Shown one piece after another: positions 24,267 through 64,000 of a stretch of 64,000 nucleotides of DNA. How positions within the stretch are numbered: position 1 is the first letter of the stretch; every line of letters starts with the position of its first letter. Source of the stretch: Aquilaria yunnanensis (Eukaryota > Streptophyta > Magnoliopsida > Malvales > Thymelaeaceae); the NCBI GenBank assembly GCA_039654915.1, contig CM077594.1, positions 110,064,893-110,128,892 of the forward strand, given 5' to 3'. The translations under genes and the position numbers were made by a program. The notes below the pieces were generated by a model. The model searched no databases, was not told the origin of the DNA, and saw only the letters and a program-made list of their open reading frames with translations.

Positions 24267-24336
24267 AACGGCTTTCTGCTCTGCAACTTCTCACTCCCTC
24301 GTCACTCGTTTCAGACTAGGCAGAGTTTGTAGGGGT

Positions 24337-40733: not shown

Positions 40734-41818
40734 TGTGGCAACATCGGATTTTCTGGAGTCGCCACCAATCTGTTTCACCTAGGTCGATTGGTCACCTTAA
40801 AATTGGTCTGCGAGAGTTCGGGGATTCGGGAGTACGGTTACGTTAAAACAACTTTGTTAAAACGCCCAAAAATTGGTACCTTAGTTGATTTCAATTTTGT
40901 TTTGCTTTGCTTTAAAAAAAAAATATTCAGTTAATTTTCAAACTAGAAATTTTAACTGAATTAATCGGATGTGGATTTTTAAATTAATACCGGTTTAAAA
41001 ATATTTAGTAATTAATTTGTATAAAAATTTGATATTTCCGAACCATGGACTCTGCCGAGTCACCCGGACACGGAAGTTTTAATTCCGAACCATGGACTCT
41101 GCCGAGTCACCCGGACACGGAATTTGACGAAATTTTAAATAATTACATCCATATCGTAAAATATGGATTTTTATCTTTATATTTATTTTTATTCAGTTTA
41201 AAAAAATTGATATTTTCCAAACCGTGGATTCTGCCGGATCATCTGGATATGGAAATTGATTTAATATTTTCTTAAATTTTTTTTGTTTATTTAATCATAA
41301 TTTTTTAATATTTTGTTGTTATTATTTTTTTGACTTTTCTTAAATTGTTAATTACTATTACTTTTAAAAAAAATTGATTGATTTTTTTTAATGTTTTCTT
41401 TAAAAGAAATAAATAAAAATATGTAATCCAAAAATAATAAAAGATGGTTGGCTTTTTTTGTTAAAAATTAATTTTTTTTTGTTAGACATACAAATGAAGT
41501 TAATTATTCACATAAAAAAAACTTCTTTTTTGTTATTATTTTATTTTTTATTTATTATTTTTTTCTTATGGTTAAAGGTGAAATAAGTGAAATAAGTTTT
41601 AACCATCTACATAATTAAAACTTGCATAAGTTAAGTAATGGAAAATTAAAGGAAAATAAAGTGGGTTTTTTTTTTACCATCCACTTAAAAAATTACAGAA
41701 ATTAAATAACATATGCAAATAAAAAGCACATAAAGAAAGATTAAAAGTCAATAAATAATAAACAAATAAATAAAGTGGGGCTTTTTGGCCATCCACTAAT
41801 AATAAATAAATAGGAGGT
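40734..41818 (-). mobile_element. Outer retrotransposon, 3' LTR, first part
   Basis: It begins TGTGGCAACATCGGATTTTC and is homologous to the start of the inner LTRs (TGTGGCAACGTCGGATTTTC). It is interrupted at 41818 by the inner element and resumes at 59019. The 5 bp before it (cacgt, 40729-40733) would be its target duplication; the other side lies outside the window. Together the two parts make an LTR of about 2.48 kb. Because the outer internal region lies to the right and also reads on the minus strand, this is its 3' LTR. Confidence 0.85.
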
Positions 41819-44762
41819 TGTGGCAACGTCGGATTTTCGGGAGTCGCCACCAATCTGTTTACCTAGGTCGATTGGTCACCTTAAATATTGGTCTGCGAGA
41901 GTTCGGGGGTTCGGGAGTACGGTTATGTTAAAACAACTTTGTTAAAACTCCCAAAAATTGGCACCTTAGTTGATTTTAATTTTGTTTCGCTTTGCTTTTA
42001 AATAAATTTCAGTTAATTTTCAATCTAGAATTTTTAACTGAATTAATTGGATGTGGATTTTTGGTAATTAATTTGTATAGAATTTTATACTTCCGAACCA
42101 TGGACTCTGCCGAGTCATTTGGACACGGAAGATTTAATTCCGAACCATGGACTCTGCCGAGTCACCCGGACACGGAATTTGATAAAATTTTAAATAAATT
42201 AATCCATATCGTAAATATGGATTTTTATCTTTGTATTTATTTAATTTAATTAAAAAGTAGATGTTTTTCAAACCATAGATCCTGACGGATCATCCGGATA
42301 TGGAAATTATTTTTAAAAAAGGTGAGCCAAAAAATAATTATTTAATCAAAATTTCATTTATTTAATAATGAAACCAAAAATTTATGTATATTTCAAAAAA
42401 AATAAAAGAAAAGTCTTAATACTTTATTTGATAAAAGGTGAACAAAAAAAATAATTATTTAATCAAAGTTTTATTTAATAAAGGAAACAAAAATTGATAT
42501 GTATATTTCAAAAATAAAAGAAAAGTTTTAATATTTTTATTTGTTTTATTTTGTTTTAATGAAAGATTAACCAAAAGTAATTATTTAATTAAGAAACCAA
42601 AAGTAATTATTTAATTAAGAAACCAAAAATTTATATGCATATTTTAAAAATAAATAAAAGTTTTTGATATTTATATATTTTATTTTTTTGTGTTCTTTTT
42701 TATTGATAAAATAATTTTCTAATTTATAAGTCTAAAAATACATCTAATTAATAAGTCTAAAATATTTAAAAAAATTTAATTCTTTTTTTCTTGTTTATTT
42801 TTATTACCTTTATTTGAAATTATTTGGGTAAAATTTTATTTTGTTTAATAAAGGAAACAAAAAGTTATATCTTTTTATTATTTTGAAAGAAATAAGTAAA
42901 ATATTACTGGATAAAAAATAAGTAAAATATTATCCCAAAGTTTTTATTTTTTTAATAATAAAAGAAAATTTATTTATATACTTTATGTAAAAAAAATATA
43001 TTTTATATACTTTATTTAAAAAATATTTTCCAAGCCATGGATCCTGGCGGATCATTTGGACATGGAGTTTAATTTTTATTAATTAATTATTTAATTAATT
43101 ATTAATTAAATCATAATTTTTATTGGATTTTTATTATTGTTTTCCTTGAATTTTTAATTATTATTACTATAGAAATATATTTGAAAACAGAATTGATTTT
43201 TTTTGTATTTTTAGAATTATTTAATTATGTTTGTTAAATAATTTTTAATAAAAAGAATAAAAAGTTTAACTTTTTGTTCTCTTTAAAGAAATAATTAAAA
43301 CATATGTTTCAAAATAATAAAAGATAATTGTCTTTAAAAAAATGATTTTTTAAATAGAATAAAGTTAATTATTCACATAAAAGAATCTTCTTTTAATTAG
43401 TTACTGTTTACTTATTTATTTATTTTTTATTATTAAATAAGTAAAATAAATTTTATCATAAAATAAAGTTTTGGCATAAAGGAAAATTAAATAAAGTAAA
43501 GTAAAGGGGAGGTTTTATTTTAGTTTAGACATAAAAAAATGCATAAAATAACACATGTAAACATATAAAGGAATATTAAAAGATAATAAATAAATAAATA
43601 CAGTGGGGCTTTTTGACCATCCACTTAAAAAATAAATAAATATAAGGCATAACCTTCCATGAATTATAAAAGTTAGCAAGAGTTAGTAAAGTTAGATGTT
43701 AATATTAATGACAATAATAATAAAAGTTAGTAAAGTTAGTAAATTAGTAACAATAATAATAATAAAAGGTTAGTAAAGTTAGTAAGTTAATAACAATAAT
43801 AGCAATAAAAAAAGGTTAGTAAGGTTAGTAAGTTAGTGAGTTAATAACAATTATAACAATAATAAAAGGTTAGTAAGGTTAGTAAGTTAGTAAGTTAATA
43901 ACAACAGTAATAAAAGTTAATAATGATAATAATAATAAACAAGTAAAATATAAAAGGAAAGTTAGTAATTAATTCTCTGCAAGAATAAAATAAAAGGTTA
44001 GTGACTCAATAGAAATAAATTGAAAAGATGAAGGGCGAAAGCTGAATTTTACCTAGGAACTAAAATTTCTAATTCTCCAGGAAACGCGGAGCGAGGAAAA
44101 AAAAAAAAAAAACAGTGAGAGAAGGTTTAGGTTTTCTGGAGAGGAAGAGAAGAGGGCCAGGGACCTAGGCTAATTTTTTTCCTTTTTCTTAAACAGAGCT
44201 CTAATCTTTCTCTCTATTTTTTTCTGTGTTCAGCACAAAATTTGGGGGGCTATTTATAGAGAAAGTTTAGCTGAACTGTTGATGGATAAATTAATAAAAA
44301 ATTTCAAACTTATCTATTAAATTGGTAAAATGACAATTTTAGTCCTTTACGTCTCTCAGCCTCAGGATAAGTTCCTGAAGCTTCTGATTTTGACAATTTT
44401 GTCGTTTTCTGTCAATTTGAGCCAAAAACGTCGGCAGGCTCAAAATTTTATGTGACAAACTACCAAATGCTCCTGGAACTTTTAGAATTTGTCAATTTTT
44501 TCCGAAACTTCTCAATTTTGTCATTTTTACCTCAAACTTTTAATTTTTTGTCATTTTTTTCATGAAATTTTATTTTATTTCAAACATACACATATTCACA
44601 CATATATCATTTTAAATCAAATTTTCACAAAACAAAAATATATTTTAAACTAATTAAATTTTTTTTAATAATAATAGTAATATATATTTTTTTTAAATTA
44701 ATTTTTTTTAATAAAATTTTTTTCAAAATTTTAAAACACCCGGACGAAATTGGGTGTCAACA
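41819..44762 (-). repeat. Inner element, 3' LTR
   Basis: Plus-strand ends are TGTGGCAACG and GGTGTCAACA (on the sense strand TGTTGACACC...CGTTGCCACA). By eye it differs from the other LTR at three positions (near 41925, 41949 and 42269) and by one T in a T-run near 44695. It contains a minus-strand TATA box at about 44250-44260 (CTATAAATAG) and four stem-loop motifs at 42096-43065. A short open frame at 41992-42249 recurs in the other LTR but spans these repeats and is not a credible gene. Confidence 0.95.
44250..44260 (-). promoter_or_regulatory. LTR TATA box
   Basis: The minus-strand sequence CTCTATAAATAGCCCC lies about 500 bp inside the sense-strand 5' edge of the LTR. The equivalent copy in the 5' LTR (58500-58511) would drive the element. 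This implies a short U3 and a long R/U5. Confidence 0.55.
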
Positions 44763-44776
44763 GCTGCCCCCCTTTG
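44763..44776 (-). promoter_or_regulatory. Polypurine tract of the inner element
   Basis: On the sense strand GCAAAGGGGGGCAGC stands directly before the 3' LTR (TGTTGACACC). This is the expected primer site for plus-strand DNA synthesis. Confidence 0.75.
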
Positions 44777-44861: not shown

Positions 44862-46660
44862 AACAGTAAGGTTTAAGGAAAGGTCCTTAAAACCTCTAAC
44901 GATAGGAAAGCTCCTATTGTTGTAAGATGGACTGATTGATTGATTATTTGTTTGAGGTTAAGGAAAGGTCCTTAGAACCTCTAACGATAGGAAAGCTCCT
45001 ATCGTTGTAAGATGGACTGATGGATTGATTGTTTGTTTTAGGTTAAGGAAATGTCCTTAGAACCTCTAACGATAGGAAAGCTCCTATCGTTGTAAGATGG
45101 ACTGATTGATTGATTATTTGTTTTCGAGGCAAAGGTTCCATCCTTAAAACCTCGGATTGATTGATTGATCTCGAGGCAAAGGTTCCATCCTTAAAACCCC
45201 GGATTGATTGATTGATGTCGAGGCAAAGGTTCCATCCTTAAAACCTCGAATTGATTGATTGATGTCGAGGCAAAGGTTCCATCCTTAAAACCTCGGATTG
45301 ATAATTGATCTCGAGGCAAAGGTTCCATCCTTAAAACCCCGGATTGATTGATTGATCTCGAGGCAAAGGTTCTATCCTTAAAACCTCGAATTGATTGATT
45401 GATCTCGAGGCAAAGGTTTCATCCTTAAAACCCTGGATTGATTGATTGATCTCGAGGCAAAGGTTCTATCCTTAAAACCTCGGATTGATTGATTGATCTC
45501 GAGGCAAAGGTTCCATCCTTAAAACCTCGAATTGATTGATTGATGTCGAGGCAAAGGTTCCATCCTTAAAACCTCGGATTGATAATTGATCTCGAGGCAA
45601 AGGTTCCATCCTTAAAACCCCGGATTGATTGATTGATCTCGAGGCCAAGGTTCTATCCTTAAAACCTCGGATTGATTGATTGATCTCGAGGCAAAGGTTC
45701 CATCCTTAAAACCCCGGATTGATTAATTGATGTCGAGGCAAAGGTTCCATCCTTAAAACCTCGAATTGATTGATTGATGTCGAGGTAAAGGTTCCATCCT
45801 TAAAGCCTCGAATTGATTGATTGTTTTCGAGGCAAAGGTTCCATCCTTAAAACCTTGATGATGAAAATTGATTATTTTCGAGGCAAAGGTTCCATCCTTA
45901 AAACCCCGATGATGAAAATTGATTGTTTTCGAGGCAAAGGTTCCATCCTTAAAACCCCGAATTGATGAAAATTGATTGTTTTCGAGGCAAAGGTTCCATC
46001 CTTAAAACCCGATGATGAAAATTGATTCTTTTCAAGGCAAAGGTTCCATCCTTAAAACCCTGATGATGAAAATTGATTATTTTCGAGGCAAAGGTTCCAT
46101 CCTTACAACCCCGATGAAAATTGATTGTTTTCGAGGCAAAGGTTCCATCCTTAAAACCCCGATGATGAAAATTGATTGTTTTCGAGGCAAAGGTTCCATC
46201 CTTAAAACCCCGATGATGAAAATTGATTATTTTCGAGGCAAAGGTTCCATCCTTAAAACCCCGATGATGAAAATTGATTGTTTTCGAGGCAAAGGTTCCA
46301 TCCTTAAAACCCCGATGATGAAAATTGATTATTTTCGAGGCAAAGGTTCCATCCTTAAAACCCCGATGATGAAAATTGATTGTTTTCGAGGCAAAGGTTC
46401 CATCCTTAAAACCCCGATGATGAAAATTGATTGTTTTCGAGGCAAAGGTTCCATCCTTAAAACCCCGATGATGAAAATTGATTATTTTCGAGGCAAAGGT
46501 TCCATCCTTAAAACCCCGATGATGAAAATTGATTGTTTTCGAGGCAAAGGTTCCATCCTTAAAACCCCGATGATGAAAATTGATTATTTTCGAGGCAAAG
46601 GTTCCATCCTTAAAACCCCGATGATGAAAATTGATTTTGAGGCTAAGGAGCTTTCCTTAG
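44862..46660 (-). repeat. Tandem array of hairpin-forming repeats (inner element)
   Basis: Three sub-arrays follow one another. At 44868-45123 about three 84-bp units each carry two hairpins (AACGATAGGA-AAGC-TCCTATCGTT and AGGTT-AAGGA...TCCTT-AACCT). At 45123-45860 about 16 units of 44-46 bp, and at 45860-46620 about 15 units of 51 bp, each contain the stem CGAGG..AAGG / CCTT..CCTCG or CCCCG, with a 6-base loop TTCCAT and a spacer based on ATTGATTGATT or GATGATGAAAATTGATT. The last unit (46632-46668) is GAGG-C-TAAGGA-GCTT-TCCTTA-GGA-CCTC. The array lies between the LOG-like ORF and the polypurine tract. The long plus-strand open frame 46012-46683 only reflects the 51-bp period. Confidence 0.9.
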
Positions 46661-46699
46661 GACCTCGAGCGAAATTTATATAAAAGCAATTGAAATTGG

Positions 46700-47180
46700 A
46701 ATAATTTTCTTCGAAAGTGTGAATTTTCATAATTGGCGAGCGCAAAGAATTAGGCTTCGATAAAACGAGTGAATCTTGATGATGACAATAACACTGACAA
46801 ATTATGTAAATGGAGTGGATGTTTGGAATCAATATTCAAGGTTCATCTAATATTTTCTTCAGTAAATATAGATTCCCTTGTGAGATATGTCATCCGAATA
46901 AGGTTAAAGCTTAACTACCCCAAAATGTTATGCCTAGTAGACCTAATAGGATGCGTCTCAAGAGTAATAAAAATTACTCTTTACTCAGCCATTCCAACCT
47001 AAAGGCATTGTCGCATGGTTTTAATATCAGCATGGACGAAACTATCTTATAAAAAGAAATTCCCTGAAAAGAAAAACTGAAACGCGAAAGAAAATGCTGA
47101 TAATAAAACTAAAGGACAAGAAAAACGGATCAGATCGCTTCTTTCTTCCACAATACTTCAACAGGGTGAATAGAGGACCA
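46700..47180 (-). other. Conserved noncoding flank after the LOG-like ORF
   Basis: This segment is closely matched by 61375-61884 in the outer element. On the sense strand it would be the 3' untranslated region of the LOG-like gene and spacer. A plus-strand open frame (46769-47002) exists in both copies, but most differences between the copies change amino acids, so it is unlikely to be coding. Confidence 0.6.
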
Positions 47181-47804
47181 TTATGGGATGGTCGGGAAAG
47201 ACTGTCGTGTCCAGTCTATCTGAATCATTGCTGGATCTGGTTCAGGAACAAAAGCTTGTATTTTATCTAGCAATTCTTCAGCAGTTGTTGCGGATATTAT
47301 GATACGTCGTGACACTCTTGATATGAAATTCTTCTGCATAGCATAATCCATAAAAGCTATTAGACCTGTAAAGAAATTGTTAACATTCAAAAGCCCAATG
47401 GGTTTCTTATGCAAAATAAGTTGGGCCATGGAAGCAATTTGGAAGACTTCTCCTAATGTACCAAAACCACCTGGTAGAGCGATAAAAGCATCAGCATTTA
47501 AAAGCATTTGTAACACACGCTCTTGCAAATTTTTAACCACTAATTCTTCTCCAATCGTGCCCCCAGAAACAAATTTCAAAGGTCTAGGGATGATGCCCAA
47601 AACTTGACTTCCTCCTAAAGATGCTGCTGATGCTACACCTCCCATTAATCCAACACTACCTCCTCCATAAACTAAATGTATTTTTCGCTCAGCTAATACT
47701 TTACCCAAATGGTTGGCTGCTTTTAAATACTCTTCATCTTTTCCAGGAAAAGCGCCAGAAAATACGCAAATACTTCGGAATTTACGAGTTGGGGTTTTCT
47801 CCAT
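47181..47804 (-). CDS. LONELY GUY (LOG)-like cytokinin riboside 5'-monophosphate phosphoribohydrolase, retrotransposon-borne (inner)
   Basis: An intact 207-residue frame starting MEKTPTRKFRS; an upstream in-frame ATG at 47864 is less likely because a TATA-like box lies between the two (47830-47842). The fold markers of LOG enzymes are present: YGGGSVGLMG near residue 50, an arginine in the segment LQERVLQM, and ALPGGFGTLGE, which fits the family motif PGGxGTxxE with its catalytic glutamate. LOG enzymes release active cytokinin bases from their nucleotides in the cytosol. The sequence is divergent from the canonical plant LOG set. It is inside an LTR retrotransposon, on the sense strand after gag, and an orthologous copy is at 61885-62478. 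Whether it is catalytically active is unknown, but no key residue is visibly lost. Confidence 0.85.
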   Translation of the reverse strand: MEKTPTRKFRSICVFSGAFPGKDEEYLKAANHLGKVLAERKIHLVYGGGSVGLMGGVASAASLGGSQVLGIIPRPLKFVSGGTIGEELVVKNLQERVLQMLLNADAFIALPGGFGTLGEVFQIASMAQLILHKKPIGLLNVNNFFTGLIAFMDYAMQKNFISRVSRRIIISATTAEELLDKIQAFVPEPDPAMIQIDWTRQSFPTIP

Positions 47805-47827
47805 TCCTATCCTTATCCTTGTGAGAA

Positions 47828-48200
47828 AAGAGGATATATTTATAGAGATGAAGAGATAAGGCAATAATTTTATTTTTCAAGAATGGATACATTATTGCCA
47901 GCTATTCACAGTAGTCACGGGTATGACTCTGGTCAGGTATGGGTACAATATCGTTAAAAGAGGAGGAAAATTTTCAAAATAGCTGCTAGCATGTACAGTA
48001 GTCACTACTGTAGCTTACGTTAGGAGTAGGTACGTGATTGTTGGAGGAGAAGGAAAATTTCAAAAGTGGCAGCTATATACAGTAGTCATAACTGTATCTC
48101 ATGTCAGGAGTGGGTACATTATTGGGAGGATAATTTCAAAAGCGACAGCTAGTATGTACAGTAATCGTGACTTTGGTTCACGTCTTCCAGTGATATTGCA
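47828..48200 (-). promoter_or_regulatory. Candidate promoter of the LOG-like gene, with repeated modules
   Basis: The minus-strand sequence CTCTATAAATATATCCTC (47829-47846) is a good TATA box about 30 bp before the start codon region. Upstream of it, about four diverged modules of 60-90 bp repeat the order GTACC(C/T)A(C/T), TGACnnnAG, TACAGTnnTGACTACTGTA and AGCTnnC. The same arrangement lies at 62510-62880 in the outer element. Short direct repeats upstream of a TATA box suggest an enhancer, but this is inference. Confidence 0.5.
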
Positions 48201-48223
48201 TCCAGTAACGGCTTCAATGCCTT

Positions 48224-48772
48224 CTATGAATCGGCGATTTGCATCCCATCCAGTTTTCTCACAAACTGGCAAACTGGGTCATTAAAAGTCAGATTTCCAA
48301 GACTGTAACGATCCTGTTCTTTACGGAAAGTCCACCATAAATCCATAATTTTCCATTGCACTATTTCACAAGAATGTGTTTCAAAAGTTAATAGGATATT
48401 ATCCAAAGATTCCTTACGCAGGCCATTCTTGATGAATTTTCTTTTATCTTCACGATTTCTAGTGATCATCCCTAAAGAACGACATTTAGCATCGCAATTC
48501 CATCGTCCACATTTATGACAGACACCTAGCCTCTTTGCTCTTCACTTTTTGGCATAAGCGCTTTTACCTAAGCCGGGCATACGGGGCACAAATACGTCTG
48601 AAACTTCACCAGCCGAGCGGACCTTAGCTTCAATTAAGCACCGCACATTGTCAGGAATGCCTTTGTGCATAAAGACTCTAATCCTTTCACATCTAGCTTG
48701 GTAAATCATTTTAAGAACATTTATTGGGATGGAAGGAAAGTATTTTCGCCTGGCGGAAAGAGTAGAATCCAT
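48224..48772 (-). pseudogene. Virus-like cysteine-rich nucleic-acid-binding protein gene, copy B (inner), with nonsense mutation
   Basis: The frame has the same length (183 codons with stop) and layout as the intact copies at 49061-49609 and 62906-63454. One in-frame TGA (48542-48544) replaces the arginine codon in the middle of the basic motif that follows KSAYAKK. This cuts the product before its cysteine cluster. The rest of the frame after the stop is open. TATA-like sequence CTATAAATG lies at about 48893-48901 upstream. Only the truncated N-terminal 76 residues could be made. It is closer to copy B of the outer element than to its neighbour copy A. Confidence 0.75.
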
Positions 48773-49060
48773 TGATAAAAGAAGAATTTGAGAGAAGAGA
48801 TGAAGAAATCAGTTATTGTAGGAAACTGAAATAACCGATTATGAGAGTCAGAGAGTATTGCATCCGCTACTTAACCGGAAAGAAGAACACGCATTTATAG
48901 CGATGAAAGGATAACGTGTTAATTACGCTTACAGGAACAAGTTCATTATTGTCCAAAGGTAATGTAAATTTTTCAAATATGACAAATCGTATGTACAGTA
49001 ATTGTGACTGTGGCTCACATCTTCCACTGGCTTTACGTCCAGTAACAGCATTAACGGCTT

Positions 49061-49609
49061 CTATGAGTAGAGGATTTGCTTCCCATCCAGCTTTCTTACA
49101 AGCTGGCAAACAGGGTCATTTACAGTCAGATTTCCGGGACTGTAACGGTTTCGTTCTTCATGAAAAATGCTCCACAAACCAAGTAGTTCACGTTGCACAG
49201 ATCCACAAGAATGCGTCTCAAGAGTCAATTGGATATCATCCAACGAGTCTTTACTCAGGCCATTCTTAATGAATCGTATTTTATCTTCTCGATTATCAAA
49301 GATCATCCCTAAAGAACGACATTTAGTATTACAAGTCCACCGTCCACATTTATGGCAGACTTGCAACCTTTTCGCTCTTCGCTTTTTGGCATAAGAGCTT
49401 TTGCCTATACCAGGCATGTGAGACACAAATGCCTCTGGGATTTCACCTGCCAAACGAACCTTGGCTTCGATTAACCACCGCACATCTTCAGGGATTCCTT
49501 TGTGCATCAGAACTCTTAATCGTTCACAGCGAACTTGGTAGATCTTTTTGAGGATGTTCATTGGGAGAGAAGGGAAATACTTTCGCAAGGCGGAAAAAGT
49601 AGGATCCAT
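49061..49609 (-). CDS. Basic cysteine-rich protein resembling betaflexivirus nucleic-acid-binding proteins, copy A (inner)
   Basis: An intact frame of 182 residues. The N-terminal 65 residues are helical and charged (ALRKYFPSLP, RVLMHKGIPEDVRWLIEAKV). Then come a glycine-led basic motif, GKSSYAKKRRAKR, and a cysteine cluster CHKCGRWTCNTKC (C-x2-C-x4-C-x3-C), followed by DKIRFIKNGL. This order of basic motif, zinc-finger-like cluster and FIK/FVK-x-G segment is what I recall for the small cysteine-rich proteins of carlaviruses and vitiviruses (plant RNA viruses), which bind nucleic acid and can suppress RNA silencing or alter host transcription. The C-terminal 80 residues match nothing I know. 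It is on the sense strand of the retrotransposon. A host zinc-finger origin is possible; the viral link needs a profile search. Confidence 0.6.
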   Translation of the reverse strand: MDPTFSALRKYFPSLPMNILKKIYQVRCERLRVLMHKGIPEDVRWLIEAKVRLAGEIPEAFVSHMPGIGKSSYAKKRRAKRLQVCHKCGRWTCNTKCRSLGMIFDNREDKIRFIKNGLSKDSLDDIQLTLETHSCGSVQRELLGLWSIFHEERNRYSPGNLTVNDPVCQLVRKLDGKQILYS

Positions 49610-49774
49610 TTTCTAGGAGGAAGTAAAAGAAAGAAGGGGTGAAGGAATCAGTTATTATGGGCAACTGAGAGAACCGACTTGAGAGTCACGGAGTACCGTA
49701 TCCGCCGTTTAACCGGAAAAGTAGATCCTACTTCATTTTGATAGATATATTTTTTTTTATCCGTTGATCCAGTC

Positions 49775-53097: not shown

Positions 53098-54849
53098 TCA
53101 CATCATCATAAAAACGATAAGTTGGGATGAGTCTATGAGTCTTTGCAGATTCTTACGGAATTCTGAGCATTCTTGGATAGAATGACTCTTACTGTCATGA
53201 AAGTTGCACCATTCCTCATCTTCAACTTCGTCATATCCAAAAGAAGGTTTTCCCATGATAATCCCTTCTTTCACAAGGCATGAATATACATGCTTAAGAG
53301 GGGTTATGATATCATTGACTGACTTTTTCATCAGCCGGTGTTCTTCTATCATATTGACTGGTTTTTCTTGATGAGGCGGCAATGGATTGTGAGTGACGTT
53401 CGGTTCATCGGAAAAGTCCAACCACTTTGATTCGATTAATTGTTGGACTATACGTTTCAATGCTGTGCAATTTTCCAAGCCATGGCCTGGAACGCCATCA
53501 TGATATGGGCAAGTTATGTTGGGGTCATACCACGTTGGATATGGGGGTCCAAATGGATTTGTAGGAATTGGACGGATAAGTTGACTTTCTATGAGTTTTG
53601 GATACAACTCAGTGTAAGTCATGGGAATTGGTGCAAAAACTTCTTTTGGTCTTCGTGTGGGTACTGGAGGAGTCGGAACAGGTGGCCGTAACTGATTAGG
53701 CCTGTTGAGAGGATAATTGTTGGGCCTATTGGGAGGATAATCATTAGGCCTATTGGAAGGATAATCATTGGGCATATTGGGAGGATAGTCATTGGGCCTA
53801 TTGGTAGGATAATAATTGGGCCTTTTGGCAGAATAGGATAGGCGAGGACCGGTAGCCACAGTACCTACGAGGGGAATCCCTCTTTCGCGTCCTATTTGTT
53901 GTACTTCTTCATCTTTTGTTCTGGATGGTCCTCCTCTTTTTATAGGATCACTAAAGGACTCAGCAATCTTCCCAGTCCTAATCCCATGCTCGATCCTTTC
54001 TCCAGACATGACAACATCGGAGAAATTAGTTGCCGAATTGCCGATGAGTTTGTCATAATATGGGTATTTCAGTGTCTGGACAAACAAAGTAACCATTTCT
54101 TTTTCTGTCATGGGTGGCTGAACTTGTGCAGCTAAGTCCCTCCACCATTGGCCATATTCCTTGAAAGTTTCTGGCTTTTTCTTCTCCATGTTTTGGAGAG
54201 TTTGGCGATCCGGAGCCAAGTCCATAACATGTTTATAGTTGCCGATGAAGGCCTGAGCAAGGTCATTCCAAGTTTTGATGTTTCTTGGTCCTTGACTTAG
54301 ATACCACTGCAATGCTGATTTTGTGAGACTTTCCTGAAAAAGTGCAATCCACACCTTTTCATCTTTTGTGAGTGGTTGTAGTCTCCTTAGGAACAGTGTG
54401 ATGTGAGTGATGGGATCACTCGTTCCATCGTATTTTACGAAATCCGGTACTTTAAAGTCCGAAGGGATTATGACGTCTGGCACTAAGCAGAGGTCATCCA
54501 CTGAGAGAGATCCGAATATATTACCTCCTTCAATGGCTCGCAGTCTCTTCTCTATTGTTTCGAGCTTTTGAGATTCTGCTTCTTCTTTTGGTAATATATT
54601 CTTCTCTTCATGTACAGTGTCTTGTTTCAGGTGAACACTAGCAGACGGTCCTGATTCTTGAAACAGGTTTTCTTGGACTGAGACTCGTTGCGGGGTGAAT
54701 CCCGGGGGATAAGTGGGATCTTGTACTTCTTTGATGGGGACTTGAGTTGCTTTCCCTTTGATTAATTCCATCAATTGTCTCATCTGTTCTGACATACTTT
54801 CAATCTTGGACTCCATCTCCATGAGATGTCCTTCGGCTTGTTCTGCCAT
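53098..54849 (-). CDS. Retrotransposon Gag polyprotein (Ty3/gypsy, Tat/Ogre-like)
   Basis: An intact frame of 583 residues starting MAEQAEGHLMEMESKIESMS. A short N-terminal coiled coil (residues 1-35) is followed by the conserved retrotransposon gag core (about 150-300; WIALFQESLTKSALQWYLS, FIGNYKHVMDLAPDRQTLQN). Next is a proline/asparagine-rich tract at about 340-390 made of six 8-residue repeats of the type NRPNDYPP, and two cysteine-histidine motifs, CPYHDGVPGHGLENC (about 447) and CNFHDSKSHSIQEC (about 548), which are the usual nucleic-acid-binding motifs of this lineage. Gag forms the cytoplasmic particle that packages element RNA. The frame ends after FMMM with no protease or reverse transcriptase following in any frame, so Gag is the only classical retroelement protein made by this element. 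Confidence 0.92.
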   Translation of the reverse strand: MAEQAEGHLMEMESKIESMSEQMRQLMELIKGKATQVPIKEVQDPTYPPGFTPQRVSVQENLFQESGPSASVHLKQDTVHEEKNILPKEEAESQKLETIEKRLRAIEGGNIFGSLSVDDLCLVPDVIIPSDFKVPDFVKYDGTSDPITHITLFLRRLQPLTKDEKVWIALFQESLTKSALQWYLSQGPRNIKTWNDLAQAFIGNYKHVMDLAPDRQTLQNMEKKKPETFKEYGQWWRDLAAQVQPPMTEKEMVTLFVQTLKYPYYDKLIGNSATNFSDVVMSGERIEHGIRTGKIAESFSDPIKRGGPSRTKDEEVQQIGRERGIPLVGTVATGPRLSYSAKRPNYYPTNRPNDYPPNMPNDYPSNRPNDYPPNRPNNYPLNRPNQLRPPVPTPPVPTRRPKEVFAPIPMTYTELYPKLIESQLIRPIPTNPFGPPYPTWYDPNITCPYHDGVPGHGLENCTALKRIVQQLIESKWLDFSDEPNVTHNPLPPHQEKPVNMIEEHRLMKKSVNDIITPLKHVYSCLVKEGIIMGKPSFGYDEVEDEEWCNFHDSKSHSIQECSEFRKNLQRLIDSSQLIVFMMM

Positions 54850-55330: not shown

Positions 55331-56047
55331 AGTTTGCTTATCCATTATCGTAGAACTTCAAAACTTTTAGTTGTCATTATAAAGACCAAAAAGTTAGCAT
55401 AATTTGATGCGTGGTTTTGATGCATGAAGAATAATTGCACAAGAAAGATAAGGTTATTAATAAGTTAAATAGCAATTAACAACTCATGAAGTATTATGGA
55501 AAAATGAATTAAAACCATAAATATAAGACACGAAGAAAATAAAAGTGTAGAGCAACAACATAGCATAACAAGGACGTGCTTATGGCGTTGGTAAAATGGT
55601 AGAAATTCTATGGTCAGTTCTATGGTTAAGTGGGGAGTTCTATATGCATAAGGTAGCTTATCAAAAAGGCAAGGGATAGTTCCCGAATCCCGTCACTAAA
55701 TCATAGTGACGGCCCGATTCCTTACCCTCTAGGGTTAATGTAAGGAATGGATTAATTCGAGTCGTAGCTTTTCGTGGGCCCATGCAGAGACTAACCGTCT
55801 CAGAAGGCAATACACTACTTTGCTACTTTGAAACCGGTGAAGGCTTGGAGACCGTGGCCTCACAAGGACAGCAACACCAATTCCGCTTAGAAAGAATCGT
55901 GTTTGATTTAAGGAAGCTCGGGTATAGAGCTTCATATTGTGAATGCATTATGCATGTTTAGAATAAGTAAATATAACATATAAATCCACATAATAAGCAA
56001 AGTAAATCAAAACAAATCAACTTTAGGCTCGACTCACTAACGTGGAG
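55331..56047 (-). other. Untranslated leader of the inner element
   Basis: No open frame or repeat of note. It lies between the primer-binding site and the leader tandem repeat and would be 5' untranslated RNA. Confidence 0.5.
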
Positions 56048-56065
56048 TCCCCAGCGGAGTCGCCA
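56048..56065 (-). promoter_or_regulatory. Primer-binding site
   Basis: The sense strand reads TGGCGACTCCGCTGGGGA starting 3 bases after the end of the 5' LTR. The leading TGG pairs with a tRNA 3' CCA. This sequence type is common in Tat/Ogre elements; I believe the tRNA is an arginine species but did not verify it. Confidence 0.7.
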
Positions 56066-56068
56066 AGC

Positions 56069-59013
56069 TGTGGCAACGTCGGATTTTCGGGAGTCGCCAC
56101 CAATCTGTTTACCTAGGTCGATTGGTCACCTTAAATATTGGTCTGCGAGAGTTCGGGGGTTCGGGAGTACGGTTACGTTAAAACAACTTTGTTAAAACGC
56201 CCAAAAATTGGCACCTTAGTTGATTTTAATTTTGTTTCGCTTTGCTTTTAAATAAATTTCAGTTAATTTTCAATCTAGAATTTTTAACTGAATTAATTGG
56301 ATGTGGATTTTTGGTAATTAATTTGTATAGAATTTTATACTTCCGAACCATGGACTCTGCCGAGTCATTTGGACACGGAAGATTTAATTCCGAACCATGG
56401 ACTCTGCCGAGTCACCCGGACACGGAATTTGATAAAATTTTAAATAAATTAATCCATATCGTAAATATGGATTTTTATCTTTGTATTTATTTAATTTAAT
56501 TAAAAAGTAGATGTTTTCCAAACCATAGATCCTGACGGATCATCCGGATATGGAAATTATTTTTAAAAAAGGTGAGCCAAAAAATAATTATTTAATCAAA
56601 ATTTCATTTATTTAATAATGAAACCAAAAATTTATGTATATTTCAAAAAAAATAAAAGAAAAGTCTTAATACTTTATTTGATAAAAGGTGAACAAAAAAA
56701 ATAATTATTTAATCAAAGTTTTATTTAATAAAGGAAACAAAAATTGATATGTATATTTCAAAAATAAAAGAAAAGTTTTAATATTTTTATTTGTTTTATT
56801 TTGTTTTAATGAAAGATTAACCAAAAGTAATTATTTAATTAAGAAACCAAAAGTAATTATTTAATTAAGAAACCAAAAATTTATATGCATATTTTAAAAA
56901 TAAATAAAAGTTTTTGATATTTATATATTTTATTTTTTTGTGTTCTTTTTTATTGATAAAATAATTTTCTAATTTATAAGTCTAAAAATACATCTAATTA
57001 ATAAGTCTAAAATATTTAAAAAAATTTAATTCTTTTTTTCTTGTTTATTTTTATTACCTTTATTTGAAATTATTTGGGTAAAATTTTATTTTGTTTAATA
57101 AAGGAAACAAAAAGTTATATCTTTTTATTATTTTGAAAGAAATAAGTAAAATATTACTGGATAAAAAATAAGTAAAATATTATCCCAAAGTTTTTATTTT
57201 TTTAATAATAAAAGAAAATTTATTTATATACTTTATGTAAAAAAAATATATTTTATATACTTTATTTAAAAAATATTTTCCAAGCCATGGATCCTGGCGG
57301 ATCATTTGGACATGGAGTTTAATTTTTATTAATTAATTATTTAATTAATTATTAATTAAATCATAATTTTTATTGGATTTTTATTATTGTTTTCCTTGAA
57401 TTTTTAATTATTATTACTATAGAAATATATTTGAAAACAGAATTGATTTTTTTTGTATTTTTAGAATTATTTAATTATGTTTGTTAAATAATTTTTAATA
57501 AAAAGAATAAAAAGTTTAACTTTTTGTTCTCTTTAAAGAAATAATTAAAACATATGTTTCAAAATAATAAAAGATAATTGTCTTTAAAAAAATGATTTTT
57601 TAAATAGAATAAAGTTAATTATTCACATAAAAGAATCTTCTTTTAATTAGTTACTGTTTACTTATTTATTTATTTTTTATTATTAAATAAGTAAAATAAA
57701 TTTTATCATAAAATAAAGTTTTGGCATAAAGGAAAATTAAATAAAGTAAAGTAAAGGGGAGGTTTTATTTTAGTTTAGACATAAAAAAATGCATAAAATA
57801 ACACATGTAAACATATAAAGGAATATTAAAAGATAATAAATAAATAAATACAGTGGGGCTTTTTGACCATCCACTTAAAAAATAAATAAATATAAGGCAT
57901 AACCTTCCATGAATTATAAAAGTTAGCAAGAGTTAGTAAAGTTAGATGTTAATATTAATGACAATAATAATAAAAGTTAGTAAAGTTAGTAAATTAGTAA
58001 CAATAATAATAATAAAAGGTTAGTAAAGTTAGTAAGTTAATAACAATAATAGCAATAAAAAAAGGTTAGTAAGGTTAGTAAGTTAGTGAGTTAATAACAA
58101 TTATAACAATAATAAAAGGTTAGTAAGGTTAGTAAGTTAGTAAGTTAATAACAACAGTAATAAAAGTTAATAATGATAATAATAATAAACAAGTAAAATA
58201 TAAAAGGAAAGTTAGTAATTAATTCTCTGCAAGAATAAAATAAAAGGTTAGTGACTCAATAGAAATAAATTGAAAAGATGAAGGGCGAAAGCTGAATTTT
58301 ACCTAGGAACTAAAATTTCTAATTCTCCAGGAAACGCGGAGCGAGGAAAAAAAAAAAAAAAACAGTGAGAGAAGGTTTAGGTTTTCTGGAGAGGAAGAGA
58401 AGAGGGCCAGGGACCTAGGCTAATTTTTTTCCTTTTTCTTAAACAGAGCTCTAATCTTTCTCTCTATTTTTTTCTGTGTTCAGCACAAAATTTGGGGGGC
58501 TATTTATAGAGAAAGTTTAGCTGAACTGTTGATGGATAAATTAATAAAAAATTTCAAACTTATCTATTAAATTGGTAAAATGACAATTTTAGTCCTTTAC
58601 GTCTCTCAGCCTCAGGATAAGTTCCTGAAGCTTCTGATTTTGACAATTTTGTCGTTTTCTGTCAATTTGAGCCAAAAACGTCGGCAGGCTCAAAATTTTA
58701 TGTGACAAACTACCAAATGCTCCTGGAACTTTTAGAATTTGTCAATTTTTTCCGAAACTTCTCAATTTTGTCATTTTTACCTCAAACTTTTAATTTTTTG
58801 TCATTTTTTTCATGAAATTTTATTTTATTTCAAACATACACATATTCACACATATATCATTTTAAATCAAATTTTCACAAAACAAAAATATATTTTAAAC
58901 TAATTAAATTTTTTTTAATAATAATAGTAATATATATTTTTTTTTAAATTAATTTTTTTTAATAAAATTTTTTTCAAAATTTTAAAACACCCGGACGAAA
59001 TTGGGTGTCAACA
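56069..59013 (-). repeat. Inner element, 5' LTR
   Basis: 2945 bp, nearly identical to 41819-44762 (three substitutions and one indel by eye). It is followed by the target duplication GAGGT (59014-59018). TATA box on the minus strand at about 58500-58511. It would promote transcription of gag and the cassette. Confidence 0.95.
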
Positions 59014-59018
59014 GAGGT

Positions 59019-60411
59019 ATAACCTTCCATGAATTATAATAATTATAATAATAAAGATAATAAAAGTTAGTTGTTAGAATTAGTTGTTAATAATAGTAAT
59101 AATAACAATAATAAAGGTTAATAAAGTTAGCAAAGTTAGTTATTAATAATAATAACAATAATAATAAAGGTTAGTAAAGTTAGTAAGTTAGTAAGTTAGT
59201 GAGTTAATAATAGTAACAACAATAATAATAAAGGTTAGTGATAATAACAACAATAAATAATAGATAAACAAATAAATATTAAAAGAGTTAGTAATTAGTT
59301 TTTCTTTCTGCAAGAATAAAAGAAAAGGTTAGTGACCAAAGTGAAAGAAATTGAAAAGATGAAGGATTAAATGAGAGTTGTACCCTTAGTATTGAAATTT
59401 GAATTTCTGGAAACGCGAAACAGAGGCGACGCGGGCGCGTAAGGGGGGGGGGCAGCTGGTGCGACGGCACGGGCACGGGGCGGGGCAGGGCGACGGCGGC
59501 GAGGGAGCACGGCGGAGGCGGCAGGGCGACAGCGACGGTGAGTAGAGGGAGAGGAGAAAACGCGACGGGACGGGGTGGGGGCGGAGGTGACGGTGGACGG
59601 CGTGGGGGCGGCAGGACGGCGGAAACGGACCAAGCGGCAGCGGCGGGCGCACGGGCGGTGGCGGCGTGTGGCTTGGAAGAAAGAGGAGAGAGATAGACCG
59701 AGACAAAACGGAAGGAGGAAGACGGGGGCCAAAGCGTCAGAATAAAAAATTTTGAGATTTTCTGGAGAAAGGGAGGAGAGCCAGGGACAAGGGCTGTAAT
59801 TTTCTCTTTTTTTTTTTTTAAAACGGAGCTCTAAGCTTTCTTTCTATTTTTTTTTTCTGTGTCCAGCATCAAATTTGGACCCCTATTTATAGAGGAAGTT
59901 TGGCTGAACTGTTCCTAATTAAATAATAAAAATAATCAAAACTTATCTCTCAAATTGGTAAAATGACAGTTTCAGTCCTTTACGTTTCTTATCCTCTGGA
60001 TAAGTATCAGAAGCTTCTGATTCTGACAATTTTGTCGTTTTCTGTCAATTTGGGCCAGAAACGTCCGTCTGGCCCAAAATTGATGCGAAAAATTACGCAA
60101 AGCTCCTGAAACTTTCAGAATTTATCAATTTTTTCCGAAACTTCTCAAATTTGTCATTTTTACCTCAAACTTTTTAATTTTGTCATTTATGGAGTTTTAA
60201 TTTTTACTTCAAACATACACATATACCCATATATATCTTTTTAAATCAAATCTTCTAAAAAAAAATATATATTTTAAACTAATTAAATTTTTTAGTAATA
60301 ATAATAATAATAATAATATTAATAATAATAAATAATTTTTTTAATTAATATTTAATGAAAATTTTTTAATGAAAATTTTTTTTAATGGCCGGACGAAATT
60401 GGGTGTCAACA
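59019..60411 (-). mobile_element. Outer retrotransposon, 3' LTR, second part
   Basis: Sequence resumes with ATAACCTTCCATGAATTATA, homologous to the inner LTR at 43648, exactly where the first part stopped, and ends GGGTGTCAACA. It has the LTR TATA box (about 59883-59893). A GC-rich block of about 330 bp at 59410-59745 has no counterpart in the inner LTR. The inner and outer LTRs are clearly diverged. Confidence 0.85.
59410..59745. repeat. GC-rich insertion in the outer LTR
   Basis: The block is very rich in CGGCG words; the inner LTR has only an A-run at the matching place (44098-44112). It has no clear target duplication. Minus-strand open frames here (59367-59732 and 59386-59706) are proline/arginine-rich and are by-products of base composition. 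Confidence 0.6.
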
Positions 60412-61884: not shown

Positions 61885-62478
61885 CTAGTCTATTTGGATC
61901 ATCGCTGGATCTGATTCAGGAACAAAAGCTTGCATTTTATCTAGCAATTCTTCAGCAGTTGTTGCGGATATTATGATTCGTCGTGCTACTCTTGATATGA
62001 AATTCTTCTGCATAGCATAATCCACAAAAGCTATCAGACCTGTAAAGAAATTGTTAACATTCAACAGCCCAATGGGTTTCTTATGCAAATTAAGTTGGGT
62101 CATGGAAGCAATTTGAAAGACTTCTCCCAATGTGCCAAAACCACCTGGTAGAGCGATAAAAGCATCAGCATTTAAAAGCATTTGTAACACACGCTCTTGC
62201 AAATTTTTAATCACTAATTCTTCTCCAATCGTGCCCCCAGAAACAAATTTCAAAGGTCCAGGGATGATGCCCAAAACTTGACTTCCTCCTAAAGATGCTG
62301 CTGATGCTACACCTCCCATTAATCCGACACTACCTTCTCCATAAACTAAATGTATTTTTCGCTCAGCTAATACTCTACCCAAATGGTTGGCTGCCTTTAA
62401 ATACTCTTCATCTTTTCCAGGAAAAGCTCCAGAAAATACACAAATACTTCGGGGTTTACGAGTGGAGGTTTTTTCCAT
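61885..62478 (-). CDS. LOG-like protein, retrotransposon-borne (outer), probably impaired
   Basis: A 197-residue frame starting MEKTSTRKPRS, orthologous to 47181-47804 (about 4 percent nucleotide difference by eye). The ALPGGFGTLGE motif and the ERVLQM arginine are kept. Two changes look harmful: the glycine-rich motif reads YGEGSVGLMG instead of YGGGSVGLMG, and a TGG codon has become TAG, removing the last ten residues. A TATA-like box is at about 62515-62525. It is on the sense strand of the outer element, after the two cysteine-rich protein ORFs. Confidence 0.8.
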   Translation of the reverse strand: MEKTSTRKPRSICVFSGAFPGKDEEYLKAANHLGRVLAERKIHLVYGEGSVGLMGGVASAASLGGSQVLGIIPGPLKFVSGGTIGEELVIKNLQERVLQMLLNADAFIALPGGFGTLGEVFQIASMTQLNLHKKPIGLLNVNNFFTGLIAFVDYAMQKNFISRVARRIIISATTAEELLDKMQAFVPESDPAMIQID

Positions 62479-62905
62479 TCTTATCCTTACCCATGTGAGA
62501 AAAGAAGAAAAGAGGATATATTTATAGAGATGAAAAGATAAAGTAATAATTTTTTTTTTTAAGAGTGGATACATTATTGCTAGCTATACACAATAGTCAC
62601 GAGTATGACTCTGGTCAGGTATGGGTACACTATCGTTAAAAGAGGAGGAAAATTTTCAAAATAGCTGCTAGCATGTACAGTAGTCACTACTGTAGCTTAC
62701 GTCAGGAGTAGGTACGTGATTGTTGGAAGAGAAGGAAAATTTCAAAAGTGGCAGCTATATACAGTAGTCATAACTGTATCTCATGTCAGGAGTGGGTACA
62801 TTATTGGGAGGATAATTTCAAAAGCGACAGCTAGCATGTACAGTAATCGTGACTTTGGTTCACGTCTTCCACTGATTTTGCATCCAGTAACGGCTTCAAT
62901 GCCTT

Positions 62906-63454
62906 CTATGAATCGGCGATTTGCATCCCATCCAGTTTTCTCACAAACTGGCAAACTGGGTCATTTAAAGTCAGATTCCCAAGACTATAACGATCTCGTT
63001 CTTTTTGGAGAATTATCCATAATCCAACAATCTCAAATTGCACTATTCCGCAAGAATGCGGTTCAAGAACCTCTCGAATATCTTTTAGAGATTCCTTACA
63101 CAAGCCATTCTTAATGAATCTTATTCTATCATTACGATTTCTGGTGATCACTCCTGGAGAACGACATTTATTGCCGCAAATCCACCATCCACAATTATGA
63201 CAAACGCCTAGCCTCTTTGCTCTTCTTTTTTTGGCATAAGCGCTTTTACCAAAGCCGGGCATACGGGGAAAGAACGCTTCTGGAACTTCACCAGCTGAAC
63301 GAACCTTAGCTTCGATTAGCCACCGCACATTATCATGAATGCCTTTGTGCATAAATACTCTGAATCGTTCACATCTAGCTTGATAAATCTTTTTAAGAAC
63401 ATTTATTGGGAAGGAAGGAAAATACTTTCGTAGGGCGGAAAGAGAAGACTCCAT
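62906..63454 (-). CDS. Basic cysteine-rich protein resembling betaflexivirus nucleic-acid-binding proteins, copy B (outer)
   Basis: An intact frame of 182 residues, starting MESSLSALRKYFPSFPINVL. The basic motif GKSAYAKKRRAKR and the cysteine cluster CHNCGWWICGNKC keep the spacing of copy A. FIKNGL follows, and the frame ends DGMQIADS like the inner copy B. About three quarters of the first 80 residues are identical to inner copy A by eye. TATA-like CTATAAATATG lies upstream at about 63520-63530. Family assignment and doubts are as for 49061-49609. Confidence 0.6.
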   Translation of the reverse strand: MESSLSALRKYFPSFPINVLKKIYQARCERFRVFMHKGIHDNVRWLIEAKVRSAGEVPEAFFPRMPGFGKSAYAKKRRAKRLGVCHNCGWWICGNKCRSPGVITRNRNDRIRFIKNGLCKESLKDIREVLEPHSCGIVQFEIVGLWIILQKERDRYSLGNLTLNDPVCQFVRKLDGMQIADS

Positions 63455-63678
63455 TGATGAAGGAGGTATTTAAGAGAAGAAAGAAATTAGTGATTGTAGG
63501 AAATGGAAATAACTAACACATATTTATAGTGATGAAAAGGATAATGCGTTAATTACACTTGCAGAAGCAAGTACATTATTATCAAAAGAAAAGACAAATG
63601 ACAGCTTATATGTACAGCAATTATGACTGTGACTCTCATCTTCCACTGATTTATGTCCAGTAATGGCTTCAATGCCTT

Positions 63679-64000
63679 CTATAAGTCGGGGATTTGCTTC
63701 CCATCCAGTTTTCTTACAAACTGACAAACAGGGTCGTTTACAGTCAAATTTTGGGGACTGTAACGATCTCGTTCTTTATGGTAAGTCCTCCATAAATCGA
63801 CTATTTCGTGTTGTACTATTCCACAAGAATATGCTTCAAGAGTCCCTCGGATATCCCCCAGAGATTCCTTACGCAGACCATTCTTTATGAATTTTCTTTT
63901 ATCCTCGCGATTTTTTAAGATGTATCCTAGAGAACGACATTTAGTGCCGCAAATCCACCATCCACAATTATGACAGACGCCTAGCCTCATTGCTCTTCTC
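63679..64000 (-). CDS. Cysteine-rich protein, copy A (outer), partial at window edge
   Basis: The C-terminal half of a further copy: cysteine cluster CHNCGWWICGTKC, then DKRKFIKNGL, and the ending DGKQIPDL. It shares NRYSP/DRYSP-x-NLTVNDP and DGKQI with inner copy A, whereas the B copies read YSLGNLT and DGMQIADS, so this is copy A of the outer element. The reading frame is open to the window end; the start lies beyond 64000. Confidence 0.65.
   Translation of the reverse strand, partial: RRAMRLGVCHNCGWWICGTKCRSLGYILKNREDKRKFIKNGLRKESLGDIRGTLEAYSCGIVQHEIVDLWRTYHKERDRYSPQNLTVNDPVCQFVRKLDGKQIPDL

What the first reader, a model, noticed from the sequence alone, without database searches (positions are those of the whole stretch)
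46660..49620. A retrotransposon family carries a LOG-like cytokinin enzyme together with virus-like nucleic-acid-binding proteins
Seen: on the sense strand of a complete LTR element with no visible pol, two 182-aa basic cysteine-rich ORFs precede a LOG-like ORF with intact YGGGSVGLMG and PGGFGTLGE motifs. The same order occurs in the nested older relative (61885-64000). Known: LOG enzymes activate cytokinin; small cysteine-rich proteins of carlaviruses and vitiviruses bind nucleic acid and affect silencing or host transcription. Inference: the element may have gained a cassette that alters host cell division and small-RNA defence. I know of no described plant retrotransposon with this pair.
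Basis: partly seen in the sequence, partly recalled or inferred. Interest (0 to 1): 0.93.

Follow-up and report, generated by a model that had tools for sequence, protein, structure and literature searches.

The report
Virus-like and hormone-enzyme genes in retrotransposons
A plant jumping gene carries a pair of extra genes, one resembling an RNA-virus nucleic-acid-binding protein and one resembling a plant hormone-activating enzyme, and this pair seems to have moved between two distantly related jumping-gene lineages.

Summary
Observation largely right. The element (59013-41819, minus strand) is a young LTR retrotransposon: LTRs with 3 mismatches and 1 gap over 2946 columns, 5-bp target duplication, gag, no pol found. 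It carries two NABP genes, the second broken by a stop, then a LOG-like gene; NABP-1 and LOG exceed Pfam cut-offs.

It is a cassette, not a stray insert: NABP lies upstream of LOG in 30 of 30 fetched best-scoring genome copies, the window's included; dN/dS is 0.12-0.32. Of eight larger copies three have gag-pro and pol; the one pol tested whole has the extra RNase H of Tat. In the same genome an Athila-like type has NABP after integrase in 4 of 4 stretches, LOG in 1 of 4. DNA shared by both types is about 1.9 kb, so the module was probably exchanged.

LOG in Citrus and Populus Gypsy elements is known (PMC9289625). Ten paper searches gave no NABP or pair. Most LOG relatives end in a basic LxLxL tail absent from 120 host LOGs; this family lacks it. 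Its prenyl pocket is altered, so cytokinin activity is doubtful.

The parts
56069..59013 (-). 5' LTR (about 2945 bp)
   Evidence: 99.86% identical to the 3' LTR over 2946 columns; starts TGTTGACACCC, ends CA
41819..44763 (-). 3' LTR
59014..59018 (.). target-site duplication ACCTC, 5' side
41814..41818 (.). target-site duplication ACCTC, 3' side
56047..56065 (-). probable primer binding site TGGCGACTCCGCTGGGGAC, just inside the 5' LTR
   Evidence: sequence; read as Ogre/Tat-like (tRNA-Arg) from recall plus a passage of PMC9289625; pairing with a tRNA not tested
44767..44775 (-). polypurine tract AAAGGGGGG before the 3' LTR
   Evidence: read; flank printed
53098..54849 (-). gag ORF, 583 aa
   Evidence: PF03732 39.5 bits; 54903-52996 matches residues 1-640 of the L066 gag-pro at 84%
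49640..49722 (-). conserved non-coding leader of NABP-1 (left border of the shared module)
   Evidence: conserved with L001 and the Athila-type copies; no clear structure signal, no Rfam match
49061..49609 (-). NABP-1, intact 182-aa basic CxxC/CxxxC protein
   Evidence: PF05515 28.0 bits, PF01623 26.6 bits; dN/dS 0.12-0.26 against the relatives tested
48224..48772 (-). NABP-2, tandem duplicate, interrupted by an in-frame TGA
47181..47804 (-). LOG-like gene from its first ATG (207 aa), no intron needed; catalytic Arg/Glu kept; no LxLxL tail
   Evidence: PF03641 103 bits
47837..47844 (-). TATAAATA 40 nt upstream of the LOG ATG (possible internal promoter)
   Evidence: present 48 nt upstream in the older copy; function is inference
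44873..46636 (-). tandem-repeat arrays between LOG and the 3' LTR
61885..62478 (-). LOG-like gene of the older relative, G52E and early stop
62906..63454 (-). intact NABP-2 of the older relative
   Evidence: PF05515 24.2 bits, PF01623 22.7 bits
63681..64000 (-). 3' part of NABP-1 of the older relative, cut by the window end
59014..60411 (-). first part of the older relative's 3' LTR, split by the young insertion (appears to continue at 41818-40727)

Best explanation
It is an accessory-gene cassette of plant Ty3/gypsy elements: a leader, one to four copies of a basic zinc-finger protein related in sequence to the NABP/cysteine-rich proteins of flexiviruses, then an intronless LOG-like phosphoribohydrolase. 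Shown: in autonomous copies both genes lie in sense between pol and the 3' LTR, they show purifying selection, and a DNA block holding them is shared by two element types whose integrases are far apart. Inferred: the block is older in an Athila-like lineage and was copied into the Tat-type family of this genome (template switching during reverse transcription, or recombination), where NABP was duplicated. The window copy is a pol-less derivative that needs pol in trans. Inferred function: the element makes the two proteins in the host cell; NABP enters the nucleus or binds RNA and blunts silencing or activates transcription, as viral cysteine-rich proteins do, and the LOG-like enzyme cleaves a nucleoside monophosphate (cytokinin-like or another), making the cell more permissive for the element.
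For: NABP upstream of LOG in 30 of 30 fetched genome copies, the window's included. dN/dS 0.12-0.32 for NABP pairs, also between types and to L001, and 0.13-0.23 for LOG pairs. Three of 8 larger copies carry gag-pro and pol; L066 pol has RT, RNase H, extra RNase H (RVT_3) and integrase. The L001 integrase is 32% identical to that of L066 while the NABPs are 70% identical. In the same genome the four stretches read behind integrases 70-72% identical to L001's have NABP next in 4 of 4 (one frame open, L078) and LOG in 1 of 4. A-type/T-type DNA matches over 100 columns stay within the block, with the same left border in all four, while L001/A-type homology runs from integrase into NABP, hence the polarity. 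52 of 57 NABPs match each of the two viral Pfam families at E<=0.01. Viral cysteine-rich protein functions: PMC12172455 passages.
Against: No expression, localisation or enzyme data. LOG follows NABP in only 1 of 4 Athila-type stretches, in two frames. The prenyl pocket is changed. The polarity rests on one foreign contig (L001) and on 3.3-kb stretches that hold little pol; the NABP tree has weak inner support. Likeness of the NABP model to viral models is not significant (best E 0.063; query-normalised TM at most 0.25, target-normalised at most 0.42). Copies were fetched because they hold a good LOG, so they say nothing about copies without one. LOG coding DNA is no more alike between the two window copies than its spacer.
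Confidence: 0.6

Rival explanations
1. Neutral gene capture: LOG and NABP are passengers copied by the element and merely amplified with it.
For: Gene transduction by LTR elements is known; NABP-2 is broken in the young window copy and the older copy's LOG is decaying, yet the family amplified; some genome copies have frameshifted or partial NABPs.
Against: Low dN/dS across copies, types and species; near-invariant zinc-finger and basic residues in 57 aligned NABPs; 35 element-side LOG rows fall on one side of a branch from 21 plant LOGs.
Confidence: 0.12
2. NABP is an element packaging or RNA-chaperone protein in the env position, and the likeness to flexivirus NABPs reflects convergence on a basic zinc finger or capture by viruses from elements.
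For: NABP directly follows integrase in L001 and in 4 of 4 Athila-type stretches; the Foldseek matches are weak; reversed NABPs weakly hit an unrelated cysteine-rich family.
Confidence: 0.25
3. The LOG-like enzyme does not make cytokinin but hydrolyses another nucleotide, for instance an immune or stress signal.
For: Catalytic Arg102 and Glu125 are kept while Lys103 survives in 1 of 116 relatives' LOGs and Glu128 in under 20%; in the window copy all five prenyl-pocket positions differ (pocket from PMC4979012 passages, mapped here by a numbering offset of 3).
Against: Trp132 is kept in at least 95% and Glu124 in 110 of 116 of the other relatives; MmLOG, called a LOG in PMC4979012, also has a deviating prenyl site.
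Confidence: 0.35
4. In most relatives the LOG has been turned into a nuclear co-repressor recruiter by its KKRKLxLxLxL tail; this genome's family has lost that role.
For: LxLxL in the last 15 residues of 97 of 120 best LOG relatives against 0 of 120 LOG1/LOG3-like host proteins; shuffled tails give 10%. The name EAR motif is recalled.
Against: No interaction data; none of the 30 LOG proteins read from this genome ends that way, yet the family amplified.
Confidence: 0.3

Closest known systems
YgdH/LOG domain in Citrus and Populus trichocarpa Gypsy elements (PMC9289625; earlier report there credited to Steinbauerova et al. 2011)
   Same: LOG-like domain inside plant Ty3/gypsy elements
   Different: The passages and section read mention no NABP partner, LxLxL tail, selection or module exchange; the full domain chart is in a supplement I did not see. 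The 2011 paper is not held; I recall its abstract as naming two Athila-like elements with a LOGL4-like ORF.
Flexivirus NABP / cysteine-rich proteins (PF05515, PF01623)
   Same: Basic stretch followed by a zinc finger; Pfam scores above cut-off for the window NABPs
   Different: Mostly 182 aa, with further helices on both sides in models of moderate confidence; encoded by a retrotransposon, not an RNA virus
AlkB-like (2-ODD) ORF of Phalaenopsis Gypsy elements (PMC9289625)
   Same: A host-type enzyme fixed as an extra ORF in Gypsy elements; AlkB domains also occur in flexiviruses (passages)
   Different: Single RNA demethylase, shown there by in vitro assay
Antisense TRP28 ORFs of Retand elements (PMC11963269, parts 1-3 of 5 read)
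   Same: Accessory coding region between pol and 3' LTR, often with tandem repeats
   Different: Antisense and an unrelated domain; that survey examines ORFs of at least 600 bp, which would miss a 549-bp NABP

Membership tests
LTR retrotransposon | paired LTRs, TSD, PPT, PBS-like site, gag | tested here: met
Tat clade of Ty3/gypsy | additional RNase H domain in pol (criterion from PMC6317226 passages) | tested here: met
   L066 pol: RT_RNaseH plus RVT_3. Met in one autonomous relative; the window copy has no pol and is joined to it by gag (84%) and LOG (97% DNA)
Tat clade of Ty3/gypsy | position in an RT/RH/INT tree | not tested
   no reference sequences at hand
Athila clade (for L001, L077-L080) | no additional RNase H | tested here: met
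   L083, upstream of L077: RT and one RNase H, no RVT_3; L001 integrase ORF without RVT_3. One copy and one contig tested; the name Athila beyond that is recall
Athila clade (for L001, L077-L080) | position in an RT/RH/INT tree | not tested
   no reference sequences at hand
LOG phosphoribohydrolase | Lysine_decarbox profile and PGGxGTxxE motif | tested here: met
   PF03641 103 bits; motif read
LOG phosphoribohydrolase | catalytic Arg and Glu | tested here: met
   R102 and E125 kept, mapped from CgLOG R99/E122
LOG phosphoribohydrolase | prenyl pocket Met, His, Lys, Glu, Trp as in CgLOG/AtLOG3 | tested here: not met
   window copy L, Q, V, Q, M at 99, 100, 103, 128, 132. MmLOG also deviates, so this bears on substrate
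LOG phosphoribohydrolase | activity on cytokinin riboside monophosphate | not testable with these tools
   needs an assay
Flexivirus NABP | score above the curated Pfam cut-off | tested here: met
   window NABP-1 and the older NABP-2, both families; L001 NABP passes PF05515 but narrowly misses PF01623 (20.4 against 20.9); reversed controls 0 of 3
Flexivirus NABP | same fold | tested here: inconclusive
   models pLDDT 65 and 70, pTM 0.48 and 0.35; no match at E<=0.001
Flexivirus NABP | nucleic-acid binding or silencing suppression | not testable with these tools
   needs an assay

The most novel reading that the evidence does not exclude
A transferable anti-host module that circulates among genome parasites of plants: its NABP gene is shared with positive-strand RNA viruses, its LOG arm is a re-specialised nucleotide hydrolase that in most relatives carries a nuclear co-repressor tail, and the whole block jumps between retrotransposon lineages much as accessory genes move among phages.
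Probability: 0.3. Interest if true: 0.9.

Novelty: new variant of a known kind. Interest (0 to 1): 0.74.

Why it matters
Plant LTR elements are usually seen as gag-pol machines with odd extra ORFs of unknown use. Here a two-gene block is conserved in sequence, shows selection and is present in two element types of one genome, one of them young and high in copy. Two surveys used ORF cut-offs (250 codons in PMC6317226; 600 bp in PMC11963269) that would miss the 182-codon NABP. If the proteins act on silencing or on nucleotide signals, plant retrotransposons have virus-like accessory genes whose effect can be tested directly.

Tried and rejected
Stray insertion or chance ORFs: rejected. Host LOG genes as close source: 35 element-side LOG rows and 21 plant LOGs lie on two sides of a branch (SH-aLRT 97, quick tree of 61 rows); four Xanthoceras proteins with partly doubled LOG domains sit on the element side, were left ungrouped there and had been dropped from the rows. 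The careful tree did not finish; its quick tree was read. Viral contigs: NABP queries found no relative, the LOG query none; an alignment of relatives' LOGs returned 28 loci at 23-39% identity that I did not use. RNA structure of the NABP leader and trailer: z-scores -1.70 to 1.15 over 7 pieces, no Rfam match, so only sequence conservation is claimed. Structure search of NABP: no significant match. Literature: the 10 searches listed no paper that I could see to be about NABP in retrotransposons; for most hits I saw only the listing, and supplements were not open to me. PMC7264820 (passages) speaks of antisense extra ORFs without likeness to viruses. The genome searches scored only 150 of 3688 (LOG), 150 of 8277 (NABP) and 91 of 26992 (integrase) candidate places, so the share of intact copies cannot be read from them. 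No expression data were available.
Full report
What is there. On the minus strand of the window lies a complete LTR retrotransposon, 59013 to 41819. The LTRs (about 2945 bp) align over 2946 columns with 3 mismatches and one gap, are flanked by the duplication ACCTC, and end TG...CA. It contains gag, no pol that I could find, NABP-1 (49609-49061, intact), NABP-2 (48772-48224, with an in-frame TGA), a LOG-like gene (47804-47181), tandem repeats and a purine tract. It inserted into the 3' LTR of an older relative whose own NABP and LOG genes lie at 61885-64000; beyond the window that relative has an NABP, a gag in two frames and no pol match in the 8.1 kb read (L076).

Are the two genes real families? 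The LOG-like protein scores 103 bits to PF03641 and matches AtLOG3 (2a33) at E 3.4e-52. NABP-1 exceeds the cut-offs of Viral_NABP and Carla_C4. In the protein database 266 of 313 candidates match NABP-1 at E<=0.01, and the best 120 are listed; sources named in that list are Populus, Xanthoceras and Orobanche. Of 57 aligned members 52 match each of the two viral families at E<=0.01; at that threshold two members also match SHQ1 and one AAA_18. None of 3 reversed sequences matches the viral families, though 2 of 3 weakly match an unrelated cysteine-rich family below its cut-off. The first structure model (57 sequences, pLDDT 65) gave 15 viral Foldseek matches, 3 of them named NABP or silencing suppressor. 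The second (93 sequences, pLDDT 70, pTM 0.35) gave 36, of which 25 are named NABP, RNA-binding or silencing-suppressor proteins; none has E<=0.001, and TM-scores are at most 0.25 by query length and 0.42 by target length. So sequence relationship is supported and fold identity is not shown; the direction of any gene flow between viruses and elements is open.

Own genome. The window lies in an 842-Mb assembly. The LOG search scored 150 of 3688 candidate places, all 150 without inner stops; the NABP search scored 150 of 8277, likewise. These are the best-scoring places and therefore biased to intact ones. The 30 best LOG loci were fetched, the window's own among them, two pairs lying close together; 30 of 30 have NABP upstream on the same strand, in a few cases as fragments or in two frames. 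Eight copies were read further: 3 of 8 have gag-pro and pol matches over their full length (both frames open in L066 and L072; pol in two frames in L064), four NABPs counting a gene cut by the stretch border as one, and a LOG; 5 of 8 have no pol match and one to three NABPs. L066 pol carries RT, RNase H, an extra RNase H (RVT_3) and integrase, the mark of the Tat clade according to PMC6317226 passages. In four of the five pol-less copies LTR-region pairs could be compared: 2, 2, 0 and 6 mismatches over 2614, 2343, 2546 and 3344 columns, so the family was active recently.

A second element type with the same block. L001, a 3.3-kb contig filed under a bacterial assembly but holding a plant-type integrase, has NABP directly after integrase, in sense; no LOG follows in the 1 kb that remains. 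Its integrase is 32% identical to the L066 one over 425 columns, while the NABPs are 70% identical over 181. The window genome holds many relatives of the L001 integrase (91 scored of 26992 candidates). I read 6 downstream stretches of 3.3 kb: the four behind integrases with 70-72% identity have NABP next (4 of 4; open in L078, broken in the others) and one has LOG after it, in two frames (L079); the two with 60% and 63% have neither. RT and a single RNase H, without RVT_3, were found in the one copy of this type read further up (L083); the name Athila is otherwise recall. DNA matches of over 100 columns between this type and the Tat type start at one left border just before NABP, about a hundred bases past the integrase match, and in L079 lie between 279 and 2186; outside only two pieces of under 60 bases matched. 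L001 and the Athila-type copies align from integrase through NABP. The simplest reading is that the block is older in the Athila-like lineage and was copied into the Tat-type family. The NABP tree puts the two types on two sides of one weakly supported branch (73/87); only one foreign contig supports the polarity, and joint transfer of NABP and LOG is inferred from L079 alone.

Selection. NG86 counts give dN/dS 0.19-0.32 for NABP pairs in the window and 0.23 for LOG young/old, 0.12-0.27 for NABP pairs across types and to L001, and 0.13 and 0.21 for LOG against L067. The LOG coding sequence is no more alike between the two window copies than its upstream spacer (95.1% against 95.5%), so the signal is in the kind of change, not its amount. 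Stops were skipped in these counts.

The LOG arm. Thirty-five element-side LOG rows and 21 plant LOGs lie on opposite sides of one branch (SH-aLRT 97, quick tree of 61 rows). In 97 of 120 best LOG relatives the last 15 residues hold LxLxL, typically KKRKLDLTLRL, against 0 of 120 best relatives of AtLOG3; shuffled tails give 10%. That these relatives lie in retrotransposons is inferred from the tree and from NABP linkage here, not from their DNA. None of the 30 LOG proteins read from this genome ends that way, nor does L079, so the loss probably preceded the transfer. Catalytic Arg102 and Glu125 are kept, but Lys103 is kept in 1 of 116 relatives and the window copy differs at all five prenyl-pocket positions (residues from passages of PMC4979012). 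Cytokinin activation is therefore possible but doubtful for this copy.

What is known. PMC9289625 (passages and section 12 read) reports the YgdH/LOG domain in Citrus and, without its filter, Populus Gypsy consensus elements, citing Steinbauerova et al. 2011, which is not held. PMC12172455 (passages) states that chrysanthemum virus B p12 acts as a transcription factor inducing hyperplasia and that carlavirus cysteine-rich proteins suppress silencing. The ten searches named under Tried and rejected listed no paper that I could see to treat NABP in retrotransposons, the NABP-LOG pair, or its exchange between lineages.

Verdict. New here, as far as these searches reach, are the NABP partner, the tailed LOG clade and the probable module exchange. 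Function is inference throughout.

Noticed in passing
window 49640-49722, 48800-48882; L001 1665-1745: A non-coding leader before NABP and about 75 nt after it are conserved between L001 and the window copies, about as well as the coding sequence; structure signal weak.
   Followed up: partly
L066 450-3812: The gag-pro ORF of the autonomous Tat-type copies carries a G-patch domain near its end.
   Followed up: no
L063, L065, L067, L073: NABP is tandemly duplicated to three or four diverged copies in some elements but single in the Athila-type stretches read.
   Followed up: partly
L082 1414-2925: A 504-aa sense frame of unknown kind follows the integrase of a different Athila-like family without NABP or LOG.
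   Followed up: no
L001 (DAIEQH010000041.1): A contig filed under Candidatus Nomurabacteria holds a plant-type retrotransposon piece, so it looks misbinned.
   Followed up: partly
window 38033-39967: Degraded hAT transposon with BED finger and hAT dimerisation region.
   Followed up: no
window 23892-24290: Frame ending in a cysteine pattern that looks like a RALF peptide precursor (by recall).
   Followed up: no
window 59440-59720: GC-rich, simple-repeat-like stretch inside the older element's LTR that I do not see in the young LTR.
   Followed up: no
window 46012-46683 (+): A 223-aa antisense ORF is only the translation of the 51-bp tandem repeat.
   Followed up: yes
P0122, P0123, P0124, P0171: Xanthoceras proteins with partly doubled LOG domains sit beside the element LOG clade and lack the LxLxL tail.
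   Followed up: partly
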